In this document: one piece after another, positions 39,305-64,000 of the stretch
Layout of the letters: every line of letters starts with the position of its first letter
How positions within the stretch are numbered: the stretch's first letter is position 1
From: Robbsia sp. KACC 23696
GTDB taxonomy: Bacteria; Pseudomonadota; Gammaproteobacteria; Burkholderiales; Burkholderiaceae
DNA length: 64,000 nt
Assembly (NCBI RefSeq): GCF_039852015.1
Contig: NZ_CP156627.1
Location: 744,001-808,000, forward strand
Reading direction: 5' to 3'
The notes under the pieces: generated by a model
Told to the model about the DNA's origin: nothing
Database searches by the model: none
What the model saw: the letters and a program-made list of their open reading frames with translations, nothing else
Position numbers and translations under genes: made by a program

Positions 39305-42300
39305 ATGAGTAATAGAGCCAGCGAATCGCTTGCCATTTCTGCCGCCTACGCGGCGTTGCCCGAAGAAAAACGGCGCATTTTTCGGCAGCGACTCTGGGAC
39401 AAAGGGATGTCGGGGCAGCAGCTCCCGATCCTTCCGTTCGCGGCACGCGGCACCGATTTTCCGCTGTCCTACGCCCAAGAGCGGCTGTGGTTTCTATGGT
39501 GTCTCGAACCAGACGCCCCCGGATATAACCTGGCGAGTGCCGTCCGCTTGCTCGGCGTGCTCGATCCGGGTCTCGTTCAGGGAGCGCTGCAGGCACTCGG
39601 CGCCGATCACGAAATTTTGAAGGCGCGGTTCATCGAACGCGATGGCGTGCCGCGTCAGACGATCGGACAGGATGCGTATTCCTGGCATGAGAACGATCTG
39701 CGGGCGATCCCGTCGGCCGAGCGCGAATCGGTGTTGCACGAACGGCTGGCGGCGCTGTCGCGCGCGCCGTTCGACCTCGCGCACGGTCCGCTTCTCCGCG
39801 TGACATTGCTGCGTCTATCGGCGCAAGCGCATGTGCTGCACTTCGCGACGCACCACATCGTCTCCGATGCCTGGTCGCTCGATGTGCTGACACAGGGCTT
39901 CGCGCGGCACTATATACGACTGCAATCGGGGACGACGGCAGCGTCGGCGGTACCTGCGGTGCAGTACGTCGATTATGCTGCCTGGCAACGCGAATGGCTC
40001 GACGTGGCGCGTCTCGATACGCAATTGGCGTATTGGCGAACGCGCCTCGGCACCGAGCATCCGGTGCTGGATCTCCCGGTGGCGCGCAAGCGAACGGGTT
40101 TGCGACGCAGCGAGGGCGGCCGACTTATCCGCACCTTGTCGACGCCGCTGACGCAGGCACTCCGCACGCTGTCGCGTGGGCAAGGCGCGACGTTGTTCAT
40201 GACCCTGCTCGCGACGTATAACGTCTTGCTGGCGCGTTACAGCCGTCAGCAGGACATTCGCATCGGCGTCCCGGTGGCAGGACGCGATCGGCCCGAAGTC
40301 GAGCGGCTGATCGGCTTTTTCGTCAATACCCTTGTGATCCGTGCCGAATTGGAGGGCGTGCGGCGCTTCGACGAATTGCTCGCGCAGGTGCGCGAGCGCA
40401 TGGTCGAGGCACAGGAGCATCAGGATGTGCCGTTCGCGCGATTGGTCGAGGCGCTGCAGCCGCAACGGAGCTTGAGCCATACGCCGTTGTTTCAAGCGAT
40501 GTTTAATTATGCCGCCGCCGGGCCCGGCGATGCGACGCTGCCCGGTCTGACGATCGAGCCGATCTCGGCGGGGACGGAGACGGCGCGTTTCGATCTGGTG
40601 TTGAACGTGGTGGAGAGCGATACGTTGTCGGTGTCGTTGACGTATGCCCGCGATCTCTTCGACGAGGCGGTGGTGCAGCGCATGCTGGATCACTATGTCG
40701 AGTTGCTGGAGCAGATTGGTGCGCAGCCCGATATCGCCTTGGGGCAGTTGCGCTTGGGCGTGGACCAGCGGTTCCAGCACGAACCGCCACGCCGGGCGTA
40801 CGAACCGGCGGTTCGACGGTTCGCGGCACAGGCGCGGCGCGAGCCGCTGGCGCCGGCGCTGCACTGCGAGGGCGTGCGCCTGAACTACGGGCAACTGGAC
40901 GCCTGGTCGACCGCGATCGCGCAACGCTTGCTGCAGCATGGGGCGCGCGCCGATGTGCGCATCGGCATTTGCATGACGCGCTCGGTGGGGCTGGTGGCGG
41001 CGTTGCTGGGCGTGATGAAGTCCGGTGCGGCCTTCGTGCCGCTGGATCCGGAGTATCCGGAGGACCGGCTTGCCTACATGATCGAGGATGCGGGCGTGGG
41101 CTGCGTGCTGGCCGATGCCGAGACGGCCCAGGCGCGGCAGACGCTGCTGCAGGGGCGTGAGGTGATCGTGGTGGAAGAGGCGGCGGTTGCGACCTCCTCT
41201 TCCGCGCCGGCGACAGCACCGATCGAGGTGCCGATCCATCCGGAGCAATTGGCGTATGTCATCTACACGTCGGGCTCGACCGGGCGTCCGAAGGGCGTGG
41301 CGATCAGCCAGCGCGCGTTGGCCTTGCACCTGGCGGACTTCCTGGAGACGTACGGGATCAGCGCACAGGACAAGCAGTTGCAGTCCTCGACGATCAACTT
41401 CGACGTGTCGCTGCACGAGATGCTGCCGGCGTTGATGTGTGGCGGGCAAGTAGAGATGCGTGGAGCGCAGCCCTGGGATCTGGAGACGATGAGCCGCCAT
41501 CTGGCCGAGGAAGGCGTGACGTTCTCGCGTATTCCGACGGCCTACTGGCAACAGTGGCTGCGCGAGCCACCGGCGGCCTCGCGGCTTGCGGCGCTGCGTC
41601 AGATCACCGTGGGCGGCGAAGGATTGCCGGGCGATGCGCTGCGGCAGTGGCGCGAAGGCCCGCTCGCGCATATCCAGCTGGACAATCTGTACGGCCCGAC
41701 GGAGACGACGGTGGCGTGCATGTATCGGCGCACGACGGCCGAGGACGTGACGCAGGCGATCGTCTCGATTGGCAAGCCCTATGCTTCGCGCAATGTCTAT
41801 GTGCTGGACGCGTCGGGCAATGAAGTGCCGCTGGGCGGGCTCGGTGAGCTGTGCATTGGCGGCGAGACGCTGGCGCGCGGCTATCTGGGACGCCCGGGCT
41901 TGAGCGCGCAGCAGTTCATCCCGAACCCGTTCGGTGCGGCGGGATCGCGGCTGTATCGCTCGGGGGATCTGTGCCGCCGCCGGGAAGACGGGACGATCGA
42001 TTTCCTGGGTCGGATCGACCAGCAGGTGAAGCTGCGCGGCTTCCGTATCGAGTTGGGGGAGATCGAGTCGGTGCTGCGGCAGGTGCCGGGGGTGGGGCAG
42101 GCGGCAGTGGAACTGCGCGGCGAGGGCGAGGGTCGTCGTTTGGTGGGCTATGTGTCGGGTGCCGCGGGCGCGGGCGCAATCGACGTCGCGGCGCTACGCG
42201 CGGGATTGGAAGGCAAGCTGCCCGCTTATATGGTGCCGAGCGCGTTCGTGGTGCTGGAGCGCTTGCCGGTGATGCAGAACGGCAAGGTGGATCGTCGCGC

Positions 42301-64000: not shown

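What the first reader, a model, noticed from the sequence alone, without database searches (positions are those of the whole stretch)
39305..64000. NRPS genes are non-collinear with predicted assembly order
The first NRPS gene ends in a release thioesterase, while the second starts with FAAL-ACP. The fatty-acid-loading protein must act before the TE-ending protein, reversing gene order. The 11-base overlap makes the two co-translated.
Basis: partly seen in the sequence, partly recalled or inferred. Interest (0 to 1): 0.75.

Follow-up and report, generated by a model that had tools for sequence, protein, structure and literature searches.

The report
Siderophore assembly-line genes out of order
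A bacterium carries the genes of a predicted new iron-scavenging peptide's assembly line in rotated order, the gene for the last enzyme sitting in front of the gene for the first, and many related bacteria share this arrangement while others keep the straight order.

Summary
N1 (39305-55507) ends in a thioesterase and overlaps, by 11 nt, N2 (55497, running past the window to 70994), which begins FAAL-ACP. I read on in the same genome: N3 and N4 follow and neither has a TE; all 15 condensation-family hits in the genome lie in N1-N4. The locus is a graminine (diazeniumdiolate) siderophore cluster: GrbD, GrbE, two A domains with the published graminine code, and an Asp module with a TauD hydroxylase. 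Best order: N2 > N3 > N4 > N1, eleven residues, N1 last. Among 59 FAAL loci of relatives (window included) the TE gene lies upstream of the FAAL gene in 24 (18 adjacent), downstream in 21, undetermined in 14. One rotated architecture matches plantaribactin, whose published mass equals the sum of both gene groups. N1's N-terminus carries the region found on other receiving NRPSs. So the rotated order is real and inherited and has an apparently characterised relative: a new variant of a known kind, not a new principle. Peptide, protein order and coupling are unproven experimentally.

The parts
28835..29572 (+). 4'-phosphopantetheinyl transferase (likely arms the carrier domains)
   Evidence: PF01648, 59.1 bits; NCBIfam HetI-like hit below its cut-off
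35547..35789 (+). MbtH-like protein (80 aa)
   Evidence: motif match only; Pfam not run on it
35798..36634 (+). discrete type II thioesterase
   Evidence: PF00975, 138 bits; found again in the genome search
36631..38103 (+). GrbD homologue (graminine formation)
   Evidence: no Pfam family; 56% to the Paraburkholderia graminis C4D1M locus, 51% to Tistrella mobilis pTM2
38125..39216 (+). GrbE homologue (YqcI/YcgG family)
   Evidence: PF08892, 218.2 bits; NCBIfam GntA hit below its cut-off
39305..55507 (+). N1: C-A(Gra)-PCP-E-C-A(Ser)-PCP-E-C-A(Ser)-PCP-C-A(Gra)-PCP-TE; predicted last protein of the line
   Evidence: domains; codes; receiving N-terminal region 59.9 bits
39750..42447 (+). internal repeat, copy 1 (module 1 C-A); copy 2 at 51888-54585 (module 4)
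   Evidence: 91.4% identity over 2711 columns
45321..46935 (+). internal repeat, copy 1 (Ser A of module 2); copy 2 at 49803-51417 (module 3)
   Evidence: 97.0% identity over 1615 nt
55497..55507 (+). 11-nt overlap of the N1 stop and the N2 start
   Evidence: same 11 nt in P. ferrariae and P. fungorum ES3-20
55497..64000 (+). N2 (inside the window; ends at extended coordinate 70994): FAAL-ACP-C-A(DGEDIGTVSK)-PCP-C-A(Ser)-PCP-E-C-A(DGEDHGTVTK)-PCP-C-TauD; predicted first protein. Beyond the window, same strand: N3 C*-A(Asp)-PCP 71013-74426; TonB receptor 74591-76906; N4 C-A(Gly)-PCP-C-A(Thr)-PCP-C-A(Gly)-PCP 76978-86682; PvdQ-like acylase 86666-89293; FhuD-like 89375-90271; FhuB 90136-92283; FhuC-like ATPase ending 93104; cyclic-peptide exporter 93149-94870

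Best explanation
The four NRPS proteins make one acylated undecapeptide siderophore in the order N2 > N3 > N4 > N1, although the genes lie N1-N2-N3-N4: a rotation of the straight order that puts the last gene in front of the first. N2 loads a fatty acid (FAAL-ACP) and adds a basic residue (probably Orn), D-Ser and Orn; its last C domain and TauD serve the Asp that N3 loads, giving beta-hydroxy-Asp; N4 adds Gly, Thr (probably D, dual C/E-type domain) and Gly; N1 adds D-graminine, D-Ser, L-Ser and graminine and releases the chain with the only NRPS-borne TE. Two graminines and one hydroxy-Asp give the three bidentate ligands for Fe(III). A PvdQ-like acylase then probably removes the fatty acid. 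Shown: gene order, domains, A-domain codes, absence of other NRPS, the same rotation in relatives. Inferred: residue identities, protein order, release, deacylation, coupling.
For: Only one NRPS-borne TE in the genome and one run of 15 C/E domains. N1's first C domain groups with elongation C domains, its supported 11-row set holding no post-FAAL domain. Graminine code identical to the published one (PMC10391617, parts 1-2 of 5 read). Straight-order relatives run FAAL first to TE last and end in Gra-TE or Gra-E-TE: G221, G006, G309, G224. N3 and N4 ends resemble those of Pandoraea and Chitinasiproducens; the Gly|Gra break at N4|N1 occurs as two adjacent genes in G224. A profile of 16 receiving N-termini hits N1 at 59.9 bits (iE 2.6e-20) and nothing else above 0 bits in N1-N4. 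Rotated order in 24 of 59 FAAL loci, straight in 21, undetermined 14. G337 (and G342 as far as fetched) carries the rotated order with codes matching plantaribactin; both gene groups together with a C12:0 acyl and a lactam give 1105.5484, the published ion (PMC6771848, parts 1-2 of 3 read; C12:0 in PMC11837247, passage).
Against: No product is known for this strain. The donor-type C-terminus of N4 is a weak signal: 7 of 2000 shuffles reach it and N1's own TE end scores the same. The X1 code DGEDIGTVSK has no characterised match in my calls. GrbD and FAAL trees disagree about how order is distributed, so the cluster is a mosaic.
Confidence: 0.87

Rival explanations
1. N1 and N2-N3-N4 make two different products: N1 a free Gra-Ser-Ser-Gra tetrapeptide, N2-N4 an acylated peptide released by the discrete type II thioesterase or by hydrolysis.
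For: A discrete type II TE is present. N1 and N4 are not fused.
Against: N1 lacks a loading module and its first C is of elongation type; N1 alone offers two of the three bidentate ligands, N2-N4 alone only hydroxy-Asp, with no ornithine hydroxylase seen among the genes scanned (not searched genome-wide); straight-order relatives join the same kinds of modules into one line; type II TEs normally edit (recalled).
Confidence: 0.05
2. One product, but another protein order, such as N2 > N4 > N3 > N1 or N1 inserted before N4.
For: Order among N3, N4 and N1 is not demonstrated by experiment.
Against: N2 ends with the C domain and TauD that an Asp module needs and N3 is the only Asp module; N3 and N4 keep the same order and similar ends in Pandoraea and Chitinasiproducens; only N1 has a TE and only N1 has the receiving N-terminal region.
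Confidence: 0.06
3. The rotation is an assembly artefact or a one-off break.
For: N1 holds long internal repeats, which can mislead assembly, and several relatives' contigs break inside this gene.
Against: The N1/N2 junction is continuous inside one 1.58-Mb contig and recurs with the same or a similar overlap in separate assemblies of other genera.
Confidence: 0.02

Closest known systems
Plantaribactin / gladiobactin cluster (plb, Burkholderia plantarii, glumae, gladioli)
   Same: Graminine and hydroxy-Asp ligands, FAAL start, Ser and Orn modules, and (if G337/G342 are such clusters) TE gene upstream of the FAAL gene
   Different: There the release gene is about 10 kb upstream, with GrbD/GrbE between; eight residues; lauroyl kept. 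Here eleven residues, direct 11-nt overlap, PvdQ-like acylase. The species behind G337/G342 is inferred.
Gramibactin and megapolibactin clusters (Paraburkholderia graminis, P. megapolitana)
   Same: GrbD/GrbE, graminine, hydroxy-Asp
   Different: Straight order: TE lies 24 kb downstream of FAAL in P. graminis C4D1M (G419); the paper calls megapolibactin modules colinear (PMC6771848)
Tistrellabactin cluster (Tistrella mobilis pTM2)
   Same: FAAL-type start, graminine, NTN hydrolase (MobM) and no acyl group found on the product (PMC10391617)
   Different: Straight order (TE 30 kb downstream of FAAL); a hydroxamate ligand and a single graminine module
Pandorabactin cluster (Pandoraea)
   Same: FAAL-started NRPS siderophore with hydroxy-Asp (PMC12144892, parts 1-2 of 5 read)
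   Different: Hydroxy-ornithine ligands, six modules, canonical order; the graminine clusters found here in Pandoraea are not described in the parts I read
Other NRPS systems that break collinearity (syringomycin)
   Same: Gene or module order does not equal peptide order (passage of PMC8949500)
   Different: There a stand-alone A-T module encoded upstream complements SyrE; here whole release and loading genes are in rotated order

Membership tests
Graminine (diazeniumdiolate) siderophore cluster | GrbD and GrbE homologues side by side with NRPS genes | tested here: met
   window 36631-38103 and 38125-39216
Graminine (diazeniumdiolate) siderophore cluster | A domain with graminine code DVHRTGLVAK | tested here: met
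   N1 A1 and A4 identical to the published code (PMC10391617)
Graminine (diazeniumdiolate) siderophore cluster | Siderophore receptor and uptake genes in the cluster | tested here: met
   TonB receptor, FhuD-like, FecCD, FhuC-like ATPase
Graminine (diazeniumdiolate) siderophore cluster | Product with loss of 30 Da (NO) and Fe(III) binding | not testable with these tools
   needs culture and MS
NRPS line with rotated gene order | Release (TE) gene lies upstream of the loading (FAAL) gene on the same strand | tested here: met
NRPS line with rotated gene order | No other NRPS in the genome that could make them separate lines | tested here: met
   (98.34% complete genome)
NRPS line with rotated gene order | TE protein cannot self-start | tested here: met
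   first C domain of elongation type (quick tree)
NRPS line with rotated gene order | One peptide made by all proteins | not testable with these tools
   only indirect support, by the plantaribactin mass
Deacylated siderophore of the PvdQ kind | PvdQ-type acylase in the cluster | tested here: inconclusive
   PF01804 383.5 bits; NCBIfam PvdQ 523.8 bits, below its cut-off of 950
Pandorabactin-type cluster | Ornithine N-hydroxylase and hydroxy-ornithine modules | tested here: inconclusive
   no such gene among those scanned; not searched genome-wide

The most novel reading that the evidence does not exclude
The last-first gene pair is a kept device rather than leftover order: overlapping the release gene with the loading gene couples their translation, so both ends of the line are made in step, while the middle genes downstream can be swapped to change the peptide. 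Gene order would then be selected separately from biosynthetic order.
Probability: 0.2. Interest if true: 0.65.

Novelty: new variant of a known kind. Interest (0 to 1): 0.47.

Why it matters
If NRPS proteins were ordered by gene order alone, about half of the resolvable graminine clusters here (24 of 45) would be read wrongly. The family offers straight and rotated versions of one kind of assembly line, a natural set for testing whether gene order matters to megasynthetases and which terminal regions decide the hand-over. The predicted product is an undescribed graminine siderophore, a class reported to release NO in plant roots (PMC6771848).

Tried and rejected
Pandorabactin as identity: rejected, since that product uses hydroxy-ornithine and I saw no such tailoring gene among those scanned. 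N1 as a self-starting lipopeptide synthetase: rejected by the C-domain tree. Donor C-terminus motif as strong evidence: downgraded, because N1's TE end scores as well as N4's. The 11-nt overlap as proof of co-translation: not accepted; overlaps are found between other neighbouring genes here. A 1006-aa fused ABC protein: rejected; FhuB sits in an overlapping frame. The first GrbD tree had one row (G182) in a wrong frame; rebuilt with that row corrected and without G386, whose GrbD is on another contig, and without G096. No structure prediction was run.

Literature limits: searches in the open PMC library listed no paper whose title or abstract start speaks of rotated gene order in graminine clusters; I did not read supplements or figures, and the plantaribactin gene map is in a figure I could not see.

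Full report
What is there. The window is bases 744001-808000 of contig C2 of a 6.32-Mb, three-contig genome. The genus is inferred to be Robbsia: a genome that the tool lists as same genus (G036) has its GrbD at coordinates that match the locus titled Robbsia andropogonis ICMP2807. I read the genome on past the window. Coordinates above 64000 continue the window numbering. On the + strand lie, in order: an MbtH-like ORF, a type II thioesterase, GrbD, GrbE, N1, N2, N3, a TonB-dependent siderophore receptor, N4, a PvdQ-like acylase, FhuD-, FhuB- and FhuC-like uptake genes and a cyclic-peptide exporter.

The observation. N1 is C-A-PCP-E-C-A-PCP-E-C-A-PCP-C-A-PCP-TE; N2 is FAAL-ACP-C-A-PCP-C-A-PCP-E-C-A-PCP-C-TauD; N3 is C*-A-PCP; N4 is three C-A-PCP modules with no TE. 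The N2 ATG lies 11 nt inside the end of N1. All 15 matches to the condensation family in the genome are in these four genes, and N1 carries the only thioesterase attached to an NRPS.

What it makes. Codes read from an alignment: N2 DGEDIGTVSK, Ser, DGEDHGTVTK; N3 Asp; N4 Gly, Thr, Gly; N1 DVHRTGLVAK, Ser, Ser, DVHRTGLVAK. DVHRTGLVAK is the graminine code given for tistrellabactin (PMC10391617, parts 1 and 2 of 5 read). DGEDHGTVTK sits where plantaribactin would have Orn, so I read it as Orn; DGEDIGTVSK is probably a basic residue too. The Ser, Thr and Gly readings rest on recalled code tables; Asp also resembles the tistrellabactin table (DLTKVGHVGK). The TauD domain at the end of N2 and the Asp module on N3 fit beta-hydroxy-Asp; a review passage says TauD domains lie next to Asp-selective A domains (PMC8949500). 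N3's C domain has lost the catalytic HHxxxDG motif, as have its counterparts in G221, G006 and G398, but not that of G309; I take it as an interface-type domain (recalled concept). N4's third C domain has HHx5GD, a dual C/E signature that I recall from the literature (motif found). Two graminines and one hydroxy-Asp would give six iron-binding atoms only if N1 and N3 work on the same peptide.

Which protein follows which. (a) N1's first C domain: in a quick tree of 134 C domains from 17 clusters plus three E domains, it is nearest to N1's own fourth C domain (68% identity) and to the first C domains of other TE genes; the 11-row supported set around it has no post-FAAL domain. Some other rows of that tree have long, unreliable branches. 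(b) Ends: N3's tail and N4's head resemble those of the equivalent proteins in Pandoraea and Chitinasiproducens. (c) A profile made from 16 receiving N-termini of other clusters (17 chosen, one came out empty and was dropped) finds N1 residues 49-91 at 59.9 bits and nothing above 0 bits elsewhere in N1-N4. (d) N4's acidic leucine-rich tail looks like donors in other clusters (7 of 2000 shuffles reach its score), but N1's TE end scores as high (2 of 2000), so this is weak.

Relatives. GrbD homologues occur in 45 of 398 family genomes examined, and a scan of named genomes gave 67 loci. I searched 49 genomes behind 50 of those 67 loci, and then 12 genomes, for the N1 TE and the N2 FAAL (GrbD positions). 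Three of the 12 repeat genomes of the 49 and were dropped; one genome (G407) had no FAAL. That leaves 59 FAAL loci, window included (one genome, G408, has two): TE upstream of FAAL in 24, downstream in 21, undetermined in 14 because TE and FAAL are on different contigs or no TE was found. In 18 of the 24 the two genes are neighbours; the script put the window outside its adjacent bin only because its Pfam TE match was partial (338 nt), and I moved it by hand. Named neighbours include Paraburkholderia ferrariae, P. fungorum ES3-20, P. acidicola, P. tropica, Caballeronia, Pollutimonas bauzanensis, Bordetella sp. LUAb4 and two Herbaspirillum. In six the TE gene lies about 10 kb upstream with GrbD/GrbE between (G422, G417, G408:C263, G337, G342, G015). 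Straight order is seen in Pandoraea, Chitinasiproducens palmae, P. graminis, P. eburnea, Tistrella and others.

The junction. Of the 18 neighbouring pairs, 15 overlap when the best-placed ATG is taken: 11 nt in three, 8 nt in five, 4 nt in seven; one is ambiguous (G386) and the two Herbaspirillum have gaps of 51 and 66 nt. The start codons are my choice, not annotated.

History. On a tree of 42 FAAL domains the straight/rotated label needs 2 changes (shuffled mean 13.9, 0 of 500 as low). On a tree of 41 GrbD proteins it needs 6 (shuffled mean 13.6, 0 of 500) (the earlier one search contained a mis-framed row). Order is thus inherited with the synthetase, and the graminine genes have partly separate histories. 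The root is not secure, so I do not say which order came first.

An independent check. G337 and G342 (genus code g12 of the same family) hold, in gene order, [C-Gra-E-Gln-Gly], [C-Gra-E-TE], then GrbD, GrbE, [FAAL-Asp-Ser], [Ser-E-Orn-like] (the complete FAAL gene and the last gene were seen in G337 only, G342's stretch being cut). The Gln reading rests on likeness to the tistrellabactin Gln codes. Read in rotated order this is acyl-OHAsp-Ser-D-Ser-Orn-D-Gra-Gln-Gly-D-Gra. The plantaribactin paper reports L-erythro-OHAsp, L-Ser then D-Ser, Orn, Gln, D-Gra, a lactam from the C-terminus to Orn, and m/z 1105.5484 (PMC6771848). Lauroyl plus these residues, with two Gra and one Gly, closed as a lactam, gives 1105.5484; C12:0 is listed for plantaribactin in PMC11837247 (passage). 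Neither half alone fits (620.35 or 522.23). The species match is inference.

Verdict. The non-collinearity is real, shared with many relatives and apparently already present in a cluster with a known product, though the text I read does not comment on it. The novelty lies in the rotated last-first pair with its recurring overlap, in the two orders existing within one family, and in an undescribed eleven-residue graminine siderophore that is probably deacylated. PvdQ-like proteins also turned up in the fetched stretches of seven other clusters (G399, G224, G309, G221, G405, G417, G006); other clusters were often cut short, so absence there means nothing.

Noticed in passing
window 39750-42447 / 51888-54585 and 45321-46935 / 49803-51417: Modules 1 and 4, and 2 and 3, of N1 are near-copies at DNA level (91.4% and 97.0%), a sign of recent duplication or gene conversion; contigs of several relatives break inside this gene.
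   Followed up: partly
L009 15013-18426 (N3), with counterparts in G221, G006, G398: N3 begins with a condensation domain that has lost HHxxxDG, also degenerate in the Pandoraea, Chitinasiproducens and Bordetella counterparts; a non-catalytic partner of the Asp hydroxylase is likely.
   Followed up: partly
L064-L065 (G221) and L067-L069 (G006): Giant single NRPS of 9425 and 9752 aa with a module that has C and PCP but no A domain.
   Followed up: no
window 30132-34760: MacA/MacB/outer-membrane efflux genes on the opposite strand just before the cluster, possibly its exporter.
   Followed up: no
L140-L142 and L170 (Bordetella sp. LUAb4): A very long rotated graminine line with at least five NRPS genes; its end was not reached.
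   Followed up: no
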